Source: Candidatus Kuenenia hertensis (GTDB taxonomy: Bacteria > Planctomycetota > Brocadiia > Brocadiales > Brocadiaceae). From it: a DNA stretch of 64,000 nucleotides. Numbering within the stretch: the first letter of the stretch is position 1; each line of letters starts with the position of its first letter. Below, piece by piece: positions 45,688 to 63,857 of this stretch. The notes beneath the pieces were generated by a model, which saw nothing but the letters and a program-made list of their open reading frames with translations, had not been told where the DNA came from and searched no databases. The DNA lies in contig SOET01000001.1 in NCBI GenBank assembly GCA_021646465.1, forward strand, positions 124,001 through 188,000, in the 5' to 3' direction. Both the position numbers and the translations under genes were made by a program.

Positions 45688-46457
45688 ATAGTACAAGACG
45701 CATTGCAATGCGTCTCTACAAAGTGTGTGGGCGTTGTTTTGGTGGGCAATGCCCACACCTACATTGTTAAAAGCAGCCGAAGGCCTAATTTAACGTTTAG
45801 GAATTTTCATTTTTTTAATGAGGGTTTGCGGGGAGGTGTAGTTGTAATAAGTGTAACTACAATCAGATATGACAAAAGTTGCAGGATGTAGGACAAGCGT
45901 TCTGTCTTGGTCCTGCTCGTTCCCAAACTCTGTTTGGGAATGTAATGGGTGAGAAACTCTGTTTCTCTCTTGCCTGTGCGCTGCACGCAGACAGGCAACC
46001 AACCGATAGGGTTTTCGGCAATTAATGGGACATCCGTGAAACAAAGTTTCACGGCAACATGGTATTCCGAAACAGAGTTTGGGAACAAGCAGGTATATGT
46101 TGCTGCCGAAGGTAGCCTATTTTAATGTTTAGAATTTCAAACTTTTTTTCTTCTCGTTCCAAAGCTCTGGCTTTGGAACGCAATTGCAAAGGAAGCTTTG
46201 CTTCCTGTTATGAGAAGCAGGAGCTTCTCGAACACGTGCGTTCCCAAGTCGGAACTTGGGAACGAGCCGTGTAAAAAAATGTGTTCCTGGGGAGGAACGG
46301 AGACGCGAATTTTCGTGTATCTGATTAAGGGGGGGAGGCTTCGCAGGCCTGATTAATGAGAAATTTCAATCTTTGTAGGGGCTGAAGACTTCGTCGTGAG
46401 CTCAGTCGAACGATTTTCAGCCCCTACGTTGAATGTTTTATCCCATAAAGTTGCCGG
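45688..46457. repeat. Cluster of short palindromic repeats between bcsA and bcsB
   Basis: No gene. Palindromes in order: GACGCATTGCAATGCGTC (45698-45715), GTGTGGGC with GCCCACAC (45723-45759), CCCAAAC/GTTTGGG pairs near 45930, GTGAAAC/GTTTCAC near 46037, TTCCAAAG/CTTTGGAA near 46158, GGAAGC/GCTTCC near 46190, and GTTCCCAAGT/ACTTGGGAAC near 46240. The first 75 bp recur at 63466-63540 with few changes. These look like dispersed repeats rather than regulatory sites of the cellulose genes. Confidence 0.7.
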
Positions 46458-48611: not shown

Positions 48612-49635
48612 GATATTGAGTAGAGTTGCTATCTGTTTTATTTTTATGATAGGAATAAGCAAAATAGTGTGCGGGAAAGAGCCGGCTGTTTGGGAAGAAT
48701 TTAAGTCGAACTTTGTCAGTCAGGACGGCAGGGTGATTGATTATTACAACGGCCATGTCAGCCATTCTGAAGGGCAGGGATATGGAATGTTATTGGCGGT
48801 AAAATATGATGATAAAGCTGTCTTCGATAAACTATGGCAGTGGACGCAGGATAATATTGCAGTAAGGAACGATCATCTGTTTGCATGGAAATGGGGGGAG
48901 CGAACGAGCGGAAGTTGGGGGGTGGTTGATTATAATAATGCAACGGATGGAGATATTTTAATTGCATATGCCCTGCTCAGAGCCGATGAACAATGGCCAG
49001 ACAATAAATATAAAAATACGGCATTGAGGATTATCGGGAGTGTAAGAGAAAATCTTGCAGTGGAATGGAATGGTTACCAATTCCTTTTGCCGGGATATCA
49101 CGGATTTATAAGGGATAACCGTTTTATATTAAACCCTTCCTATATCATTTTTTCAGCGTATCGCACATTTGCAAAGATTGACAACGAAGTTTTCTGGCAG
49201 AAGGTTTACAAAGACAGTATGTTGCTCATAGCAAAATCCTGTTTCGGATCGCTTAAAATGCCTGCGGACTGGGTAATGCTGGATGGTAAAAACATTTCTC
49301 TTTGTGATGAAAGAAAGCCTTATTTTGGTTACGAAGCAATCCGCGTATTTCTCTATCTCTCCTGGGAAGAAAATCCTCAATTCCCTGAAGGGCTTGAGAA
49401 GATGCTGGATATGTATAATAAGCTGGGCTTTATCCCCCTTTGGGCAGATCTTGCAAATGACAGCATTTCACTGCAAAATGCCCCTCCGGGTTTTTACGCC
49501 GTGTTTGCCCGTGCAGCAGAAAAGGCCGGTGAAAAAACGTTAAGTAAGAAATTATTCAAAGAGGCAAGTGAAAGGTTGATGTATGATAAAAAAGATTATT
49601 ATTCTTTTTGTTTATATCTCTTAGCCGAAGAGTGA
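48604..49635 (+). CDS. bcsZ: GH8 endo-1,4-beta-glucanase of the cellulose cluster
   Basis: 343 residues from a GTG that overlaps the end of bcsB, with AGGAGG at 48591-48596. A signal peptide (about 1-24) precedes the GH8 (alpha/alpha)6 barrel. Catalytic residues: E56 in SHSEGQGYGM and D115 in NNATDGDILIAYAL. GGERTSGSW-type text (WGERTSGSWGVVDY) precedes it. It trims or edits nascent cellulose in the periplasm. Co-translated with bcsB. Confidence 0.92.
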   Translation: MHKILSRVAICFIFMIGISKIVCGKEPAVWEEFKSNFVSQDGRVIDYYNGHVSHSEGQGYGMLLAVKYDDKAVFDKLWQWTQDNIAVRNDHLFAWKWGERTSGSWGVVDYNNATDGDILIAYALLRADEQWPDNKYKNTALRIIGSVRENLAVEWNGYQFLLPGYHGFIRDNRFILNPSYIIFSAYRTFAKIDNEVFWQKVYKDSMLLIAKSCFGSLKMPADWVMLDGKNISLCDERKPYFGYEAIRVFLYLSWEENPQFPEGLEKMLDMYNKLGFIPLWADLANDSISLQNAPPGFYAVFARAAEKAGEKTLSKKLFKEASERLMYDKKDYYSFCLYLLAEE

Positions 49636-50403
49636 ATATAGTCAAAAGCGTCTGGTTTTCGAAAAATAAACAAACCCTAAATCCCCTCTTGATAGAGGGG
49701 ACTTCCTGTTTTTTCCCCTCTAAAAAGAGGGGTGGCAGCATAGCTGACGGGGTGTGTATTTAAACATTGAATAGCACCATGAATTTTTAAAATCTGATTT
49801 GTTTGACTATGTGTTGTGCGGCGTTTTTCACCGCAAGGTCGGATTTCTTACCCGATTCCTCACGGCGGGTTTAGCAAGTAGGGTAGGCAATTCCCTTCCC
49901 TACTTCTTCTGGTTCAATCCGCAAGATTGAACCAGCAAGAGTTTGTAATTCGCAGGGGGGATTCAAATTGGCACGTTATTAAAAAAATTTTCTTGATAAA
50001 TTAAATTAAGTAGTGTAGAAAACGCAAGTTAGAATCATTTTTTTTCGGGGGAGACAGCATTTATTTTGGTATTTGGGAATTGTAATTTGCCTGAACAAGA
50101 CATGGTAATTCATATACAACAAACAAATCCCAAATCCCAATATCCAAACAACCAATAAATTCCAGTAAACAAAACCCAAATCTTTGCATAAATATCAGTG
50201 AACGAAAATTGAAACTTCAAACAATACGATCTTGAAAAAAGAGCGTTTCAATTTGCAAAGAATGTTGCTCTATACATAAAGCAATTATCCAAAAATGTTT
50301 CAAATATAGAATATGGAAAACGAATTGGCAAAGTTTGGATTTTGGAAATTTGTTATTTATTTGGTATGTGGGAATTGTAATTTGTGATTTATCTGTAATT
50401 AAG
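49636..50403. other. Repeat-rich stretch before the first SPOR-TPR gene
   Basis: 768 bp. It contains repeat copy A (49677-49757), a version of the GGTCGG/CCCGAT hairpin near 49828, the perfect stem TGGTTCAATC/GATTGAACCA (49910-49934), and a very AT-rich part. A 28-bp phrase including GGGAATTGTAATTTG occurs at about 50061 and again at about 50356. No gene is seen. Confidence 0.55.
49677..49757 (+). repeat. Dispersed repeat, copy A
   Basis: Runs from CTAAATCCCCTCTTG to GCTGACGGGGTGTGT and contains CCCCTCTAAAAAGAGGGG. An inverted copy (B) lies at 54237-54323, so the two copies flank the first SPOR-TPR gene in opposite orientation. Confidence 0.75.
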
Positions 50404-53400
50404 ATGAAAGTAGTCTATAACTTTATAATTTTTATATATATTTTTTTGTTGATAAGTGACGCCACTGCATATTCAGCCGGTAGTTCCAGCGAATCACGTT
50501 TATACACCATTCAGGTTGCCCATGTCACTGATTTGGAAGAAGCAAAGAAGCGTGCGAAGCAGTTATCGCAACTCATATTTCTTCCTATCCGCGTAAAAAA
50601 AACCATGCAGGATTATTTTGTTATTCTTGCAGGAGAAGCGGAAAGGCGTTCTGATCTGACACGTTTTGAGAGTGTTATCAGGGAGAATGGATATTCCCAG
50701 GCTTTTATTGTGAATGATTCGTATGGTGCGGTTCCTGCTATTCTGGAAATATTGCCAACTCAAACCAACGCGAAGCTGGCAGTATCAAAAAATAAACCGG
50801 AGAAAACGAATGATTCCGCCCCTCTCTATACCATCCAGGTTGCCCACATTACCAACAGGGAAGAAGCAAAAAAACGCGCAAAACACCTTTTCCGTGTTGC
50901 CCATCTTCGCACACGGATAAAAGAAAAGGATCAATATTACATCCTGCTTGCCGGCAGGGCAGGGAGGCGTTCTGATTTGCTGGACGATATTGGAATTATA
51001 CGGGAAAACGGATATCCCCAGGCAGTGATTATTAAAAGTGGTCGCCTGGAATCACCGGAAGTTTTAGATGATTTGCCTGTTACAGAGGTAACGAAGGAAA
51101 GGCAGTCGAACCTGCTGTCACTCGTTCAGAAAACTCATTATGGTGCGGATGATTCTGGTGTATTTGAAACTGATGATACTTTGTTTCATTCAACGGAAGG
51201 AGGAACAGGATATTCCGGGGATGACAGATGCAATGAGAAAAATGATACTGTCGTGCAGGCATGGGACTATTATCGGGAAAAACGATTTGATGAAGCCCTT
51301 GAGTTGTGCGACAGAATGTTGTTTTTCGATCCGTTCGATATCGATATTTTATATTTGAAGTTAAATATCCTTGTGCATACACAAAAATATATGGAAGCGA
51401 GGATGATACTGGTCAACATACCGGAGGAAAAAAGCACATTGAAATTGTTGCAGCTACGCGCGGATCTGGAGTTTTGGCTGGAAAATTATGACAATGCTAT
51501 TGCTCTGTATCAGGATTTGCTCAGGAGATGGCCGGAAAATGGTGATATCTGGTTTGGGTATTTGAAAACACTTTCAGTGGCACAGGAATGGCCGTTGCTG
51601 TCAAAAGCGATAAAAGAAGGAATAGACAAAATAGAAATGTCCGATGATAGACTGGATTTCCTGGTCGAGATGTATTTATCTTTGGCGGAGACGGAAAAAG
51701 CGCTTTGTATATGGAGAGGAATGGAGGCAGCCTCGGCCCATTGGAACAAAACTCTTTTTGCAATAGTCAATAAATTAACTGCTGATAAGAAACTGGAAAT
51801 GGCTGCTCAGGTTCTGGAGGAGGCATTGGAAATGGACGGAACGAATGGCCTCGTTGCCGGGGAATTGGCCCTTAAATACGCTTCCCTTGGTATTCCGGAG
51901 AAAGGGCTGGAAACTTTACGTTACATTGAAAAAATGCCGGAAACCAAAAATATTGTGAATAGAGCAAAAGCCGAAATATTTTCTCTTATAAAAAATTATG
52001 AAACTGCATTATCAATGTTACAGACAGTTGAGCAGGATAACCATGATAACCACAGGGCTCTTCTTGTTGAACTGGAATGCTGTTATGGTTTGGAAGATTA
52101 TGAATCGCTTATTACAAAATCATCTTTATTATTGCAAGAATGTAACAAGGAAGACTCTTCTCTGCGATCAAGGGTATTAGTCTTGCGGATACTTTCGCAG
52201 ATCAAAGTAGGATTGCATAGAGAAGCGGAAAGAGAGATCGTATTATTGAATGAAACGAAGGAAGATAAATATGCAGCCGCAATCCTTTCTGTTTTACTTT
52301 ACGCGTATGAAGGTGTTGAATTGTTATCGGCGCTGGAAAATACCGATTACGGTTCCGCAGTCTTTTCCCTTTCATTATTCGCTTCCAGCGGACAACTGGA
52401 AGAACATTACAAGTCTATTCAGGTTCTCGGGGAAGTTTTGAAGGAACCTTCTTCATGGTCAAATACGATACAATCACAACTTCTTGAAGATGAATTATTG
52501 TTCGATACGTCAAAGGTAATCGCCCTCCGCATGCTTCATGCCTGGAAGATTGCGGATGAATTATCCGGGCATAATAATGCAAACATAATGGCACAGTTAG
52601 CGATGGCCGAATACAGGGCAGGGAATTTTCAGGAAGCATTAGAGTTGTATGAGCAATTATGCAGAAAACAGGAAAATAGTGATATATATAAGCTGGGAGC
52701 GATGGAATGTTTTCTGGCAATGAACAATAAAAGCAAAGCGGCAGAAGTGTGTAATGAAATACAACTATTGAACTTGCCCTGGCAGGAAATACCCCGTTAC
52801 CTGGAAAATTTGGTGAAATTGGAAATAGAAAGAGAGGCGCTTTATAAGATAATCTCCGAATTGCCGGAAGATTTGGCAAAAAACACACATATAATAGCAA
52901 CCGTTGCAATAGCAAATATTCAATATGGTGATTACTTTCTTGTAAATGAAATGTTAGCGGAATATCTCTTAAATAATCAGTCGTATATTTCCTTCTTTCA
53001 AGTAATCATGGATCAGGTTGGGGATCTTGATAAGGGGTTGAGAGGAAAATACTATCGATTTGTGAAAAATTGGTTAAGCAATGCAGTAGAGTTATATCCT
53101 GAGAATACAAGCCTTCAGTATCAGTATGCAAGGTATCTGGCTTTGCACGACGAATACGAATTGGCAAAGAAACAGTTTTTGGCGATGTGGGAATTTAATC
53201 CCAATGATACCCGTGTAATGCGATGGATGGGAAGATTACATAGCCGGACACAACAATTTGAGACTTCGTTAAAATGGTATGATCTGTATGTGAAAACCAG
53301 GCCTTCGGACGTTTTTGTCTACCGTGAACGGGAACACGTCAATCATTGGGTGCTATGTAAAAAACAATCTGACATGGTATACGCAATGGTTTGTCAGTTT

Positions 53401-54120
53401 ATGCCGGGAGATTACAACAGTTGCTGGGAGTGGCAGGCAAAGAGGAGCGACTTAAACGCGAACCAACAGTCCGTGTTTCTGCAGGATATGTTTGCCACGC
53501 ATTATCAGAAAAGACGCCATTTCCCCCTTACTCAATTAAAACAAGCTGCTTTTTACAATGATTCAGACAGTGAACGGGGAACTATCTATAGTGGTATGTT
53601 TGGAAACAATTATGATGATAACGGGTATTCTTTTGATCGGAACGCGGGAAAATGGAAAAGAAACCAATCGTTTGTTTTTTTCGTTTATAATGGGGAGAGT
53701 GCTGATAGTGAAAGAGGAGATTCTCCGTATCCTTTATCCATGCGGATTAATAAATATTTTGCTATGGGTTTACCGGCGACAATGGACCCTTCTCTCAGTT
53801 TTGAGGAAAAACTTATGGATTTAAAAAAAATTGACAGTTCAATACCTGATCGCTTCATGGTAACTTTGAATGAAAGTTTTGAAGAGAGATTAAAGAATTA
53901 TATAGAAGAAAAGATATTACAGTATCCGGGAGAGAATGAAAAAGGGGAGAGATTTGAGATAATCAGAGATAATAAAATGAATGCTTATTTTGATTTATCA
54001 TTGCGGTGTGAGAAAAAAGGAATTCAGGAAGGTTTAAATGCCCTGCCTTCTTATGAATTGAAGAATGTTTCAACTGCATTGGGAAGAATTTTTCTGAGTA
54101 GTTTATTAGACGAAGGATGA
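50404..54120 (+). CDS. Large secreted SPOR-TPR protein without a barrel
   Basis: 1238 residues from the ATG at 50404, chosen because a signal peptide begins there (MKVVYNFIIFIYIFLLISDA); an in-frame ATG at 50335 would bury it. Two SPOR-like repeats follow (LYTIQVAHVTDLEEAKKRAK and LYTIQVAHITNREEAKKRAK, each with a GENGY- or REN-GYSQA-type end), about residues 30-105 and 140-215. SPOR domains usually bind peptidoglycan. From about 265 to 1010 it is TPR-like helical repeats. The C-terminal 200 residues are unassigned and not beta-barrel-like. Paralogous to the next gene, with which it shares the same order of parts and phrases such as EWQAKR. Probably part of glucan export or its cell-wall scaffold. 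Confidence 0.7.
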   Translation: MKVVYNFIIFIYIFLLISDATAYSAGSSSESRLYTIQVAHVTDLEEAKKRAKQLSQLIFLPIRVKKTMQDYFVILAGEAERRSDLTRFESVIRENGYSQAFIVNDSYGAVPAILEILPTQTNAKLAVSKNKPEKTNDSAPLYTIQVAHITNREEAKKRAKHLFRVAHLRTRIKEKDQYYILLAGRAGRRSDLLDDIGIIRENGYPQAVIIKSGRLESPEVLDDLPVTEVTKERQSNLLSLVQKTHYGADDSGVFETDDTLFHSTEGGTGYSGDDRCNEKNDTVVQAWDYYREKRFDEALELCDRMLFFDPFDIDILYLKLNILVHTQKYMEARMILVNIPEEKSTLKLLQLRADLEFWLENYDNAIALYQDLLRRWPENGDIWFGYLKTLSVAQEWPLLSKAIKEGIDKIEMSDDRLDFLVEMYLSLAETEKALCIWRGMEAASAHWNKTLFAIVNKLTADKKLEMAAQVLEEALEMDGTNGLVAGELALKYASLGIPEKGLETLRYIEKMPETKNIVNRAKAEIFSLIKNYETALSMLQTVEQDNHDNHRALLVELECCYGLEDYESLITKSSLLLQECNKEDSSLRSRVLVLRILSQIKVGLHREAEREIVLLNETKEDKYAAAILSVLLYAYEGVELLSALENTDYGSAVFSLSLFASSGQLEEHYKSIQVLGEVLKEPSSWSNTIQSQLLEDELLFDTSKVIALRMLHAWKIADELSGHNNANIMAQLAMAEYRAGNFQEALELYEQLCRKQENSDIYKLGAMECFLAMNNKSKAAEVCNEIQLLNLPWQEIPRYLENLVKLEIEREALYKIISELPEDLAKNTHIIATVAIANIQYGDYFLVNEMLAEYLLNNQSYISFFQVIMDQVGDLDKGLRGKYYRFVKNWLSNAVELYPENTSLQYQYARYLALHDEYELAKKQFLAMWEFNPNDTRVMRWMGRLHSRTQQFETSLKWYDLYVKTRPSDVFVYREREHVNHWVLCKKQSDMVYAMVCQFMPGDYNSCWEWQAKRSDLNANQQSVFLQDMFATHYQKRRHFPLTQLKQAAFYNDSDSERGTIYSGMFGNNYDDNGYSFDRNAGKWKRNQSFVFFVYNGESADSERGDSPYPLSMRINKYFAMGLPATMDPSLSFEEKLMDLKKIDSSIPDRFMVTLNESFEERLKNYIEEKILQYPGENEKGERFEIIRDNKMNAYFDLSLRCEKKGIQEGLNALPSYELKNVSTALGRIFLSSLLDEG

Positions 54121-54490
54121 GTTACAAGAAATCGGGAATGCTCCCCAAGATTATTCCGCATGTTTCCGCCCCTTAACCCACCGAATATTTCTGTCATTCT
54201 TTTTGTAAATAATTTGTATCTATTCAGCGTGTTAAGACACACCCCGTCAGCTACGCTGCCACCCCTCTTTTTAGAGGGGTAGTAGAGACGCAATGCATTG
54301 CGTCTCTACAAGAGGGGATTTAGGGGTGTGTTATAAATTACGCTGAATAGATACTACAAAACAAGTTAAAATTGCTCATTTGACCCAGTCTGAGGAGCTT
54401 GGAGACAAGAATGGGGATTTACAAAAACTTGGGAATGCTCCTGTTGCAATTGAGAACATTTTCTAAAAACCATTAAAAGAAAAAACCGGC
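54121..54490. other. Gap between the two SPOR-TPR genes
   Basis: 370 bp. It holds the MITE-like element (54216-54354) and a short copy of the phrase TTTGACCCAGTCTGA near 54377, which recurs near 63645 (inverted) and 63780. No gene. Confidence 0.55.
54216..54354. mobile_element. 139-bp MITE-like element (repeat copy B inside)
   Basis: Perfect 15-bp terminal inverted repeats: GTATCTATTCAGCGT (54216-54230) and ACGCTGAATAGATAC (54340-54354). Inside lies the inverted counterpart of repeat copy A (54237-54323), and inside that a 28-bp perfect palindrome with GAGACGCAATGCATTGCGTC (54282-54309) replaces the matching part of copy A. Similar 28-bp palindromes occur near 45695 and at 63465-63492. No coding capacity and no clear target-site duplication. 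Confidence 0.65.
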
Positions 54491-57400
54491 ATGAAAAAGT
54501 ATTATTTACGATTATTGGCAGTGAATAGTTGCTTCTTTCTGGTTATTCTCATTTTTAATTGTTCCACTGCAATACATAACAATTGGGCCGCAGATAACGA
54601 ACTTCGCCAGGAAAATATTATTGAAAAGAATTATTATAAAAACAGGAAATGGTTTGCGGGACTGAATAATTACCTTTTAGCGGAAAATACCTCAAAGGGT
54701 TTGGTTGCTAAACTGGGTATGTTAAAAGGCAAAGCGATGGCAAAAGAGATGAAAATGTTTACTATTGTGGTGGCAGATTTTACTGATTGGGAAGAAGCGA
54801 AACAACACACGATGCGTGTCTCGCGTATGGTTCCTTTTCCGGTATGGTTAGAACAGACGGATCACACGTATAGTATCCGAGCAGGATATTCTGCAAGACA
54901 GGAGGATTTATTACCATATGTAAAGACAATTAAAGAAAATGGCTATCCCAAGGCGTCTTTAAGTATTTTTTCTTTTAAGGAGAGAAAGGTTGTTTTAGAA
55001 GTGTCTCCTTCTTTGGAAATAAAAAGGAAAGAAGGGGAACAATTTTTGGAAATTAAGAGGAAGAAGCAGGTCGGTACGGGGAGGGTTGATCTTTCTGATG
55101 TAGAAGAGAGGTTGATTGAAAGTGAAGAAGAGGCTACGGAATTTTTTCGAACATACGAAGGAGATTATTACATTGGCAAGGCATGGAGGAGTTATCATGC
55201 GGGCAATTTTGATCAGGCAATTGAATTTTTTAATTTTGCAGGGACATTTGCCGAAACCGAGCAGGATGCCAGACTTGGAGTAGCGTATTGTTATATTGAA
55301 CTGGGGAAGAAGGAAGAGGCGCTTTCTTTGTTTGATGAATTAGTGGCGGAAAGATATAAGGTAAAAGAGATAGCGGATGTTCTTGTAAAAATAGAATGTT
55401 TTGACAAAGCCCTTGAATTGTGTAATAAGGTCCTGTTTACTGACCCGTTTAATATAGATTTTCTGATACTGAAGATAAACATTCTTGTACAAGGAAAAAA
55501 TTTTGATGCAGTCAGGTTAATCCTGGCGAGTATCCCAAAAGATAAAAATACCCTCGAATTGTCACTCCTTGCGGCAGATATAGAAGCGTGGGCGAAAAAC
55601 TATGAGAAGGCGATAGAAAAATATCAGAAATTGATTCGACAATTCCCGGAAGAAAGCGATGTATGGTTAGGCTATCTAAGGACAGTGACGTGGGCAAAAA
55701 ACTGGTTGTTATTGTCAGACATTTTACCGCAAGGGTTTGAAAAGGTTGAAATGAATGATGAAAATCGTCTTTTTTTTGTGGATGCTTACCTTGAATTGGG
55801 CGAGATTGAAAAAGCCCTTGATGTGTGGGATAAAATGGATGCGGATGCAAAGGACTGGAGCAAGTCTTTATTGAAAATAGTTGATAAATATATGGCATCC
55901 GGAAAACTGGAGGAGGCGACAAATTTATTGAAAAAAACATTAGCAACAAAGAAAAAAGATATTCACATTGCAGAACGGCTGGCGATAAATTATTTGTACT
56001 CAGAGGTGCCGGAAAAAGGTTTTGAAGCGATTGGCCAGTTTCAGCGTAGTCCGGAGACGCAGCTCAACATTGACCTCACCAGGGCAGAACTCTTTGCATT
56101 GTTAAAAAATTATGAAGCATCTTTGTCCCTCCTGCAAACAATTGACGTATCAAAAGATGAAGGAAACCGTGCTGAAATGGTGGAACTGGAGTGTTATTAC
56201 GGGCTGGAAAAAGATGAAAAGCTTGTGGAGCGTGCGGCTCTTTATTTGGAAAAATTATCGGAAAACGATACGGTTGACAGGGCTAAAATGTTGACCCTGT
56301 CTGTTCTTTCCCGGATGAGAATAGGGCAATACAAAGAAGCGGAGAAAGAAATTGAAATATTAGAAGACACACTGCCGGAAGATTACGGTCCTGCAATTCT
56401 CAGGGTGTTATTAAAAAATGCCAGCAAGCGGTTGACCGAACATGATGGATCGATTCAGGCATTAGGTGAGAAATTGGCAGGGTACTCAAAAAATGCAACA
56501 ATGGTGCGGCTTCAGCTCCTTGGTGATGAAATGTTGTATGATCAGACAAAGGTTTTGGCAATACATATTCTTGAGGCATGGAGAATTGCCGGTGAAGTGT
56601 CAAGGCATAAGAACAAAGACATCATGTACCAATTAGCACGGGCGGAATATAAAGCAGGTAATTATCAACGTTCCATTGATATGTATAAACAATTATATGC
56701 GGAGGAGAAAAACAACACCTATAAAATAGGGATGGTGGAGTGTTTTTTGGAATTGGACGACATTGAAAAGGCGAACGAATTATTTGATGAGATACATTTG
56801 CCTGATTTAATGGCGAGGGATATTTCACGGTATTTTGAAGGTATGCTGCGATTAGGGAGGGAGAAAAAGGTATTTTATGAGGCGTTATCGTTAATTCCCC
56901 CTGGTGTCATGGATATGGTGGCGATGAAAACAATAATCCTCGTTGCTCAATTATATTATGATAATTATGAAATTGCGGAGAGCAGCATAAAGCAATACCT
57001 TACGGACAAACAGGAAGATGTCTCTATTTTCAGATTGATCATGGCACGAATAGGGTATTTTGAGAAGGGTGAAAAAGGGAAATGCTATGAATTTGTAAAT
57101 GACCAATATCAATATGCAACGGAACGTTTTCCGAAGGACACGGGTATTCGGTACGAATATGCAAAACATCTTGCTTCGCATCGGGAGTATGAACCGGCGA
57201 TAGAGCAGCATTTGGTGTTGTCTGAACTTGTTCAGGATGACTATAGAGTCATTCGTTGGCTGGCACGTCTTTTTAGCTGGACAAAGCAATTTGATAAAGG
57301 GTTGATATGGTATGATAAATATACAGAGTTAAGACCACAAGATATTGTGGTGCGTCATGAAATCGCGAGGGTCTGTGGATGGGCGCTAATGCTTGAGGAG

Positions 57401-58576
57401 GCAAATGAGGCATATGAAAAGTTATGTGAAGACTTTCCTGATAATTATGAACTTTACTGGGAGTGGCAGGCGAAGAGGAATAACTGGTTAAAGCGTAAGC
57501 GATTGGCGGTTTTATATTATGAGAAACTGGTGGAACGCCACCCGGAAGACGCGGAACTTGTGTTTGATCTGGGGCAGTTGTATTCGCAGCTTAATTTCAG
57601 CAAAGAATCCGAAGATACATACAGAAAACTGCTTGTTTACGAACCAGATAACACTCGCGCAACATTTGCCGCGGAATCTGAAAAATGGAGAAGGACGCAA
57701 TCTTTGGGGCTGAAACAAACGTATATCCATCAGGAAGGAACGGGAGACAGTTTTGGCAATTTTGAAATAACGCGGTTTAGAACGGATTTAAATTATATTC
57801 CAGCAAGGTTATCGGAAGCAACGGATATTTCTATGAGTCTGGGGCATACGATATTCAATTTCACGAAACATACCGGATCGATGGCAGAACATGTTTTGCT
57901 CAAGGGAAGCAAAAATTTCCGGAATGGGATCAGGACGTATTTAAATGGTGAATTGTCGGCGTACACGGAAAACAATGAAGAAACGATTCAGTTTGAAACG
58001 GGAATAAATTATCAAATAGCTGAAATGTTTGATACAACAATGTTTACAGGGAGAGAGGATGTTCTGGAGAATTTTGTTACCTTAAGGAATCACAGGGCGC
58101 GCTATTATACCGGCGGACGTTTTATGTGGGATATAAATGAACATGTTGACGTGTATGCTCAGGCGAAACAGTACTGGTATAATGACGGGAATAACGGATT
58201 TGAGTATGATGCGTCTGTCGGGTATAAATTTTTTGTGTACCCGAGGATTTTGAAATTTTCGGTGGGGTTGTTTGGTTATGATGTACGAACAAATACCGAT
58301 GAATATTGGTCTCCCAATGCGTATCAAAAATATTCAGCGAGTCTGAGTTGGCGGCATTATTTGGGGAAAGAGCATTACGCGGGGGCGCCCGAATTTTTTT
58401 ATGAAATTGCCATGAAGCAAAGTATTGACAACGACAGTATTGATTTTGCGGAACCGTCTCTCGCCTGGGGATGGGATAACAAAAGGCGCATGAATGCAGG
58501 GTTTGAAATAAAGCCCATGAGATCGGTTGTATATGATGAAGAACGGATACATTTCTTTTTTAACGTGCGGTTTTGA
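54491..58576 (+). CDS. BcsC-like SPOR-TPR outer-membrane protein
   Basis: 1361 residues. Signal peptide (LLAVNSCFFLVILIFNC), one SPOR-like domain at about 93-165 (MFTIVVADFTDWEEAKQHTM), TPR-like repeats from about 220 to 1060, and a C-terminal region of alternating beta-strands (about 1075-1361) ending in phenylalanine (HFFFNVRF), as outer-membrane barrels do. TPR plus barrel is the plan of BcsC, which carries cellulose through the outer membrane, so this is the likely exporter of the bcsA-bcsB-bcsZ system. The N-terminal SPOR domain is not part of the enterobacterial BcsC. Its stop directly abuts the stop of the convergent cyclase gene. Confidence 0.75.
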   Translation: MKKYYLRLLAVNSCFFLVILIFNCSTAIHNNWAADNELRQENIIEKNYYKNRKWFAGLNNYLLAENTSKGLVAKLGMLKGKAMAKEMKMFTIVVADFTDWEEAKQHTMRVSRMVPFPVWLEQTDHTYSIRAGYSARQEDLLPYVKTIKENGYPKASLSIFSFKERKVVLEVSPSLEIKRKEGEQFLEIKRKKQVGTGRVDLSDVEERLIESEEEATEFFRTYEGDYYIGKAWRSYHAGNFDQAIEFFNFAGTFAETEQDARLGVAYCYIELGKKEEALSLFDELVAERYKVKEIADVLVKIECFDKALELCNKVLFTDPFNIDFLILKINILVQGKNFDAVRLILASIPKDKNTLELSLLAADIEAWAKNYEKAIEKYQKLIRQFPEESDVWLGYLRTVTWAKNWLLLSDILPQGFEKVEMNDENRLFFVDAYLELGEIEKALDVWDKMDADAKDWSKSLLKIVDKYMASGKLEEATNLLKKTLATKKKDIHIAERLAINYLYSEVPEKGFEAIGQFQRSPETQLNIDLTRAELFALLKNYEASLSLLQTIDVSKDEGNRAEMVELECYYGLEKDEKLVERAALYLEKLSENDTVDRAKMLTLSVLSRMRIGQYKEAEKEIEILEDTLPEDYGPAILRVLLKNASKRLTEHDGSIQALGEKLAGYSKNATMVRLQLLGDEMLYDQTKVLAIHILEAWRIAGEVSRHKNKDIMYQLARAEYKAGNYQRSIDMYKQLYAEEKNNTYKIGMVECFLELDDIEKANELFDEIHLPDLMARDISRYFEGMLRLGREKKVFYEALSLIPPGVMDMVAMKTIILVAQLYYDNYEIAESSIKQYLTDKQEDVSIFRLIMARIGYFEKGEKGKCYEFVNDQYQYATERFPKDTGIRYEYAKHLASHREYEPAIEQHLVLSELVQDDYRVIRWLARLFSWTKQFDKGLIWYDKYTELRPQDIVVRHEIARVCGWALMLEEANEAYEKLCEDFPDNYELYWEWQAKRNNWLKRKRLAVLYYEKLVERHPEDAELVFDLGQLYSQLNFSKESEDTYRKLLVYEPDNTRATFAAESEKWRRTQSLGLKQTYIHQEGTGDSFGNFEITRFRTDLNYIPARLSEATDISMSLGHTIFNFTKHTGSMAEHVLLKGSKNFRNGIRTYLNGELSAYTENNEETIQFETGINYQIAEMFDTTMFTGREDVLENFVTLRNHRARYYTGGRFMWDINEHVDVYAQAKQYWYNDGNNGFEYDASVGYKFFVYPRILKFSVGLFGYDVRTNTDEYWSPNAYQKYSASLSWRHYLGKEHYAGAPEFFYEIAMKQSIDNDSIDFAEPSLAWGWDNKRRMNAGFEIKPMRSVVYDEERIHFFFNVRF

Positions 58577-63421: not shown

Positions 63422-63857
63422 CGTTCAGGAATTTCAATCTTTGTAGGGTGGGCATTGCCCACCGGTAGAGACGCATTGCAATGCGTCTCTACAAAGTGTG
63501 TGGATGTTGTTTTGGTAGGCAATGCACACCTACACTGTTACGGCTCGTTCCCAAATTTTATTTGGGAACGTAATGGTCGAGAAACTCTGTTTCGAGGGTA
63601 TACACGAAACAGAGTTTCGTTTGATATCGTGTTCCCAAACTGACAGACTGGGTCAAATGAACAATTTTTCCCTATTTTGCGATATTCATTCCCCACTTTA
63701 ACGGGTGAAAAGCATTATACTTAGAATAAGGCAGGCTATTAGCAAAATTTATTCCCCACTTTTAAAATAAAAAAGTTCATTTGATCCAGTCTGAAAGTTT
63801 GGGAACAAGTAGTCGGAAAGTTGCTGCCGAAGAGCCTGATTACTATACGGAGAAATT
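63422..63857. repeat. Second cluster of palindromic repeats
   Basis: No gene. GTGGGCATTGCCCAC (about 63448), a 28-bp perfect palindrome (63465-63492) and about 75 bp shared with 45700-45775, then a TTCCCAAAT/ATTTGGGAA stem near 63547, a GAAACTCTGTTTC pair near 63580-63620, and two oppositely oriented copies of a phrase with CAGACTGGGTCAAATGAAC (about 63640 and 63775). Confidence 0.65.

What the first reader, a model, noticed from the sequence alone, without database searches (positions are those of the whole stretch)
54216..54354. Nested MITE-like element with 15-bp perfect terminal repeats
Terminal repeats GTATCTATTCAGCGT are exact. Inside is an inverted copy of a repeat found at 49677, and inside that a 28-bp palindrome that also occurs in two other repeat clusters. 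This nesting suggests successive insertions of at least two small element families.
Basis: seen in the sequence. Interest (0 to 1): 0.5.

Follow-up and report, generated by a model that had tools for sequence, protein, structure and literature searches.

The report
Tiny IS66-type jumping DNA element
A 139-base mobile DNA fragment carries no gene but has the end repeats of a known bacterial transposon family (IS66); it belongs to a set of dozens of such fragments in this bacterium and holds a smaller hairpin repeat inside it, a new example of an ordinary kind of genome parasite.

Summary
In detail: 54216-54354 has exact 15-bp terminal inverted repeats (TIRs), contains an inverted relative of the repeat near 49677, and carries a 28-bp palindrome seen in two other window clusters. 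It is a MITE, most likely moved by an IS66-family (ISBst12-like, single-ORF) transposase. The genome has 33 exact TIRs (control 0). Of 52 two-ended copies in hand, 39 carry an 8-bp target-site duplication (at least 7/8 matching; shuffles average 1.1). A decayed IS66 element in the same genome, and intact copies in relatives, share these ends and 8-bp duplications. The window copy itself has no duplication. A same-genus relative lacks the element between the same two genes, though the site cannot be aligned to the base. 'Nesting' is only partly right. The repeat near 49677 is the same hairpin core inside another MITE frame (TATAGTCAAAC... ends). The palindrome did not simply insert: it replaced one arm of an internal hairpin, and palindrome-bearing copies then moved as units. 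Verdict: a new member of a known kind (IS66-type MITE), probably in an anammox bacterium of Brocadiaceae. The modest surprise is hairpin cassettes shared between two unrelated MITE end types.

The parts
54216..54354 (+). 139-bp MITE (family A), intergenic between two TPR-protein genes
   Evidence: exact TIRs and genome-wide copies
54216..54230 (+). left TIR GTATCTATTCAGCGT
   Evidence: IS66 ends
54340..54354 (-). right TIR, exact inverted copy
54237..54245 (+). inner inverted repeat ACACACCCC, left arm of the hairpin core
   Evidence: read; paired in the fold
54323..54331 (-). inner inverted repeat, right arm (GGGGTGTGT)
   Evidence: read; paired in the fold
54262..54279 (+). internal hairpin CCCCTCTTTTTAGAGGGG
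   Evidence: read; folds
54282..54309 (.). 28-bp perfect palindrome GTAGAGAC...GTCTCTAC, replacing the 5' arm of the second internal hairpin
   Evidence: alignment with palindrome-free copies; genome count
54311..54317 (+). orphan 3' arm (AGAGGGG) of the second hairpin whose 5' arm was replaced
49637..49811 (-). different MITE frame (ends TATAGTCAAA.../...TTTGACTATG) holding the same hairpin core, in opposite orientation, with one eroded IS66-type end inside
45692..45721 (.). partial copy of the palindrome in another repeat cluster
63465..63492 (.). palindrome variant (2 mismatches) in another repeat cluster

Best explanation
The element is a non-autonomous miniature inverted-repeat transposable element whose 15-bp ends are those of IS66-family (ISBst12-group-like, single transposase ORF) insertion sequences. 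An IS66 transposase encoded elsewhere binds the two TIRs and inserts the 139-bp unit at new AT-rich sites, duplicating 8 bp of target. Its body is a compact array of hairpins, including a 28-bp palindrome that replaced one hairpin arm before palindrome-bearing copies spread. The window copy most likely arose this way and later lost or rearranged one flank, because it has perfect TIRs but no duplication. Shown: copies, TIR identity, 8-bp duplications, IS66 elements with the same ends. Inferred: that this transposase moves it, that it is now inactive here (the only IS66 locus found in this genome is broken), and the history of the window copy.
For: 33 exact TIRs in the 4.17-Mb genome, 128 with up to 1 mismatch to GTAWCTATTCAGCRT; reversed-pattern controls 0. 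Of 52 copies with both TIRs at up to 3 mismatches, 39 have duplications with at least 7 of 8 matching and 28 are exact; 5,000 shuffles give mean 1.13, maximum 6; no exact repeat at 5, 6, 7, 9 or 10 bp. The 52 come from 65 candidate pairs; the 13 dropped had an end with 4 mismatches, and none of those 13 has a duplication of at least 7/8. Counting by core and not by TIR: of 35 examined of 36 copies, 26 have both TIRs and 18 of those 26 have duplications of at least 7/8. The decayed IS66 element at G000:C78 is 1,721 bp with matching ends and an exact 8-bp duplication. Of 33 own and relatives' loci examined, 17 have both ends and 10 of those have exact 8-bp duplications. The intact transposase hits NCBIfam IS66 (E 8.6e-93) and Pfam PF03050 (E 4.7e-51).
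Against: The window copy has no duplication (3 of 8), so its own insertion is not shown directly. No intact IS66 transposase was found in this assembly (one broken locus). MITE and IS share only the ends, not subterminal sequence (by inspection), so descent by internal deletion of this IS is not shown. A joined-flank search for exact empty sites gave nothing convincing.
Confidence: 0.92

Rival explanations
1. A REP/REPIN-like palindromic repeat spread by a RAYT (Y1, HUH) transposase through single-stranded DNA; the TIRs are incidental.
For: The palindrome begins with GTAG like GTAG-tagged REPs (PMC3733652, passages seen); the genome has 9 Y1_Tnp matches; one (L217) has a related palindrome beside it.
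Against: Y1 transposases leave no 8-bp duplications (recalled), yet 39 of 52 two-ended copies have them. 8 of 9 Y1 loci carry none of the modules searched, by this scan. This may still apply to the inner palindrome alone.
Confidence: 0.04
2. A conserved regulatory RNA or DNA hairpin (attenuator, terminator) kept by selection at this intergene, not a mobile element.
For: The strand folds far better than shuffles (RNA z -13.1, DNA z -13.1) and lies between two same-strand TPR genes.
Against: Dozens of copies at unrelated sites with target duplications; absent from the syntenic intergene of same-genus G002; no Rfam match up to E 0.1 in 49500-54600. A side effect on transcription is not excluded.
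Confidence: 0.03
3. Clean successive insertions: a small element carrying the palindrome jumped into the element shared with 49677, which jumped into a TIR element.
For: Three layers can be seen, and the layers occur apart from each other.
Against: Palindrome-free copies show an arm replaced, with no target duplication. The core-sharing copy at 49637-49811 has other ends. The core in the IS66 frame is the family's normal body: 26 of 35 core copies have both TIRs.
Confidence: 0.1

Closest known systems
IS66 family, ISBst12 group (single-ORF), e.g. ISDge4 of Deinococcus geothermalis
   Same: ISDge4 has TIRs GTGACTACTCAGCA / GTAACTGCTCAGCA, an 8-bp direct repeat and one 449-aa transposase (PMC12898284, passages seen); here TIRs are GTAWCTATTCAGCGW, duplications are 8 bp, and the transposase is a single ORF of about 473 aa
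   Different: the window element has no transposase ORF and is 139 bp
Bacterial MITEs such as MITEPsy1 of Pseudomonas syringae
   Same: about 100 nt, TIRs matching a resident IS, target duplication, no gene (PMC3189936, passages seen)
   Different: MITEPsy1 is tied to ISPsy2 with a 4-nt duplication; here the family is IS66 with 8 bp
GTAG-tagged REPs / REPINs
   Same: the inner palindrome starts with GTAG and is dispersed (PMC3733652, PMC3116915; passages seen)
   Different: a fully symmetric palindrome; no consistent Y1 neighbour found

Membership tests
MITE | short, no coding capacity, TIRs, many dispersed copies | tested here: met
   100-285 bp two-ended copies, 52 of them; only an 80-aa antisense ORF overlaps the window copy at the 80-aa limit used
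MITE | target-site duplication of fixed length | tested here: met
   family level: 39 of 52 at 8 bp; the window copy itself: not met (3 of 8)
IS66-derived MITE | TIRs match an IS66 element with the same duplication length | tested here: met
   17 of 33 loci have both ends, 10 of those 17 with exact 8-bp duplications
IS66-derived MITE | mobilised by that transposase | not testable with these tools
   needs a transposition assay
IS66-derived MITE | subterminal sequence shared with the parent IS (descent by internal deletion; not required of every MITE) | tested here: not met
   identity stops after the TIR by inspection
IS66 ISBst12 group (for the partner IS) | single transposase ORF with IS66 DDE domain, ISDge4-like TIRs, 8-bp direct repeat | tested here: met
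   group features from PMC12898284
REP/REPIN with RAYT | Y1 transposase gene flanked by the repeat | tested here: not met
   1 of 9 Y1 loci has a related palindrome, beside a truncated match

The most novel reading that the evidence does not exclude
Hairpin cassettes (the ACACACCCC...GGGGTGTGT core, GTAGAGAC...GTCTCTAC palindromes with different centres, GGCGGCAGGAG hairpins) are exchanged between unrelated MITE end types, IS66-type with 8-bp duplications and a TATAGTCAAAC-type with TA-like ends, so the end pairs act as vehicles and the hairpins as interchangeable cargo. Exchange would go through arm replacement at shared hairpin arms (template switching or recombination), not through transposition.
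Probability: 0.35. Interest if true: 0.5.

Novelty: new member of a known kind. Interest (0 to 1): 0.3.

Why it matters
It gives a transposase family, copy number and target duplication for a MITE family in what is probably an anammox bacterium. It also shows a genome where one set of hairpin repeats rides in two different MITE frames. That makes it possible to ask how small palindromes get into MITEs: 100-bp, 133-bp and palindrome-bearing versions of the same unit coexist as natural intermediates.

Tried and rejected
Palindrome targeting of hairpin tips: individual cases look striking (L008, L061, L184, L186), but 5 of 50 contexts score 8 or more against 5.5% of shuffled pairings and 1.9% of random window positions, so it is not supported.

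Reciprocal recombination explaining the missing duplication: no other copy's flank pairs convincingly with both of the window copy's flanks (best 7 of 8 on one side only, AT-rich).

Exact empty sites by joined flanks: 39 queries against the loci in hand gave 3 spanning rows, two of them the same site in two overlapping loci, none convincing.

Presence in plasmids: no match in the plasmid collection. An exact two-TIR scan of the named genome collection found nothing; that collection may leave out the window's own or very near genomes. Rfam: no match up to E 0.1 in 49500-54600. Open frames of at least 150 codons near TATAGTCAAAC-type ends were listed but not assigned to a transposase. A BLAST printout meant to show the core in both frames printed nothing, so that comparison rests on reading.

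Literature: searches for the TIR letters found 0 papers. Searches for palindrome or core letters found 46 papers; the 12 listed are not about bacterial repeats by title (listing only). MITE plus Brocadia plus transposase found 0. IS66 plus MITE found 8, listing seen, one read in passages. One further paper (PMC4853749, passages) on Thiomargarita MITEs holds no mention of IS66.

Full report
Observation. The window copy (54216-54354) lies in the 370-bp gap between two same-strand genes whose products carry TPR repeats (50335-54120, also a SPOR domain; 54491-58576). Its 15-bp ends are exact inverted copies. Inside are an inner inverted repeat ACACACCCC/GGGGTGTGT, a hairpin CCCCTCTTTTTAGAGGGG and the 28-bp palindrome. 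A single strand folds into one branched stem (RNA -79.2 kcal/mol, z -13.1; DNA z -13.1).

Copy number. The window is C79:124001-188000 of a 4.17-Mb, 89-contig assembly. The exact TIR occurs 33 times, 0 times in the reversed control. A relaxed TIR (GTAWCTATTCAGCRT, up to 1 mismatch) occurs 128 times, control 0. The full element finds 53 matching places, with only 40 of 192 first-look candidates scored, so the true number of copies is probably higher.

Target duplications. I scanned the own-genome loci then in hand for facing TIR pairs 80-340 bp apart: 65 candidates. After dropping 13 with an end at 4 mismatches, 52 remained: 39 have 8-bp duplications with at least 7 matches, 28 exact; 5,000 shuffles of left against right flanks gave mean 1.13, maximum 6. 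Exact repeats at 5, 6, 7, 9 or 10 bp: 0 of 52 each. These loci were fetched mostly through TIR, palindrome or whole-element hits. As a check free of TIR bias, the core sequence alone was searched: 36 places in this genome. Of 35 examined (one place was not fetched), 26 have both TIRs, 5 one, 4 none, and 18 of the 26 have duplications of at least 7/8. The window copy has 3 of 8.

Bodies. The same ends bracket at least three bodies: family A (this one, 100-179 bp), family B (CTCGTTCCCAAAC hairpins, 105-106 and 253-285 bp) and one copy of a third body (L155, 145 bp). The script split the 52 into 37 'A' and 15 'B'; its 'A' includes L155 by a loose rule, so read 36 A, 15 B, 1 other. Family A's core is a lineage-specific burst: 36 places here against 1 each in the two same-genus relatives searched; 8 of 39 genomes (own included) have any.

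Transposase. The genome holds one IS66 transposase locus with a Pfam match, broken into pieces; a further 34-residue fragment lies at C58. The broken locus has ends GTCTCTATTCAGCGA and GAATCTATTCAGCGT, spans 1,721 bp and is flanked by GTTTATCA on both sides. Relatives occur in 17 of 39 genomes at E up to 0.001 (own included; some matches are weak); same-genus G001 has copies 91% identical to the query piece with long open frames. Of 33 loci checked for ends, 17 have a full pair and 10 of these have exact 8-bp duplications; L118 and L190 are probably one record seen twice. NCBIfam calls the 473-aa protein IS66 transposase. A paper on ISDge4 of the single-ORF ISBst12 group gives TIRs GTGACTACTCAGCA/GTAACTGCTCAGCA and an 8-bp direct repeat (PMC12898284, passages), a close match to these features.

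Organism. Contig lengths of relatives' loci (3,681; 16,827; 3,503 bp) equal those of named records of Ca. Jettenia ecosi, Ca. Brocadia sapporoensis and a Planctomycetota MAG. These genomes are listed as same family as the window. By inference the window comes from an anammox bacterium of Brocadiaceae; it is not named directly.

The palindrome. It occurs at 49 places with up to 3 mismatches (each counted on both strands; control 0). Of 37 distinct contexts in hand, 9 have TIR-like sequence on both sides within 320 bp (one of them weak), 6 on one side, 22 on none, so it is a repeat in its own right. In family A the alignment shows ...AAG|TCCCCTCTATC|AAGAGGGG... in palindrome-free copies and ...AAG|TAGAGAC...GTCTCTAC|AAGAGGGG... 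in palindrome copies: the 5' arm of a hairpin was replaced. A different palindrome (GTAGAGACAGGTTT...) sits at the same spot in long-linker copies. Palindrome-bearing copies at C61 (7/8) and C3 (8/8), and C42 and C61b with the other palindrome (8/8, 7/8), have their own duplications, so the composite moved as a unit. The other palindrome-bearing family-A copies with both ends, at C49 (4/8), C75 (5/8) and the window (3/8), do not. The window copy also lacks about 8 bp of linker present in its siblings. Targeting of hairpin tips in general was tested and not supported.

The repeat near 49677. It is 49637-49811, bounded by TATAGTCAAAAGCGTCTGGTTTT and ...CTGATTTGTTTGACTATG. This end type (TATAGTCAAACAAATCTGGTTTTCGAAA) occurs 47 times with up to 3 mismatches, control 0. 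Of 16 distinct two-ended elements in the loci scanned, 9 contain the family-A-like core by a strict pattern; the window's own copy has it in a degenerate form that the pattern missed. All but one start, and all but two end, with TA, with no longer duplication apparent, as expected of a TA-targeting transposase (inference; no such transposase was identified). Inside the 49637-49811 copy one eroded IS66-type end remains, so it looks like a family-A unit lodged in, or fused to, the second frame; the arrangement recurs in L247 of this genome and, at least in part, in G001 (L250) and G023 (L253, L256).

Empty site. In same-genus G002 the same two genes are adjacent and the gap lacks the element; the gap sequence has diverged, so the insertion point cannot be aligned to the base. 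In G001 the gap upstream of the downstream gene's homologue carries a core copy without IS66-type ends.

Reading. Everything at family level fits a non-autonomous unit moved by an IS66 transposase. The weak points are the window copy's missing duplication, the absence of an intact IS66 in this assembly, and the lack of shared subterminal sequence. The novelty is modest: a new family of a known kind. The exchange of hairpin cassettes between end types is the more novel reading, and it is neither proved nor excluded.

Noticed in passing
window 54345-54392, 63644-63691, 63769-63807: The sequence to the right of the element (CTCATTTGACCCAGTCTG) recurs inverted at 63644 and again near 63769-63807, another short dispersed repeat abutting the MITE.
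   Followed up: partly
window 45696-45965 and 63427-63600: Two long repeat clusters share the same order of modules (palindrome, then CTCGTTCCCAAA hairpin), 93% over 61 nt and 84% over 58 nt.
   Followed up: partly
L271 1286-1528: A TATAGTCAAAC-type MITE carries a palindrome variant exactly at the tip of a GGCAGGAG/CTCCTGCC hairpin.
   Followed up: partly
L217 about 1676-1719: A truncated Y1 transposase match has a GTAGAGACAGGTTTC palindrome and a half copy right beside it, a possible RAYT remnant.
   Followed up: no
L020 3551-4383 (G000:C42:54350-55182): Two TIR-like ends (GTATCTATTCAGCGA) about 830 bp apart, facing each other, could bound a longer IS66-type derivative.
   Followed up: no
L201 1275-3000: Ktedonosporobacter rubrisoli, a distant host, has an IS66 element with GTAACTATTCAG ends and an exact 8-bp duplication, so this end motif is old or widely transferred.
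   Followed up: partly
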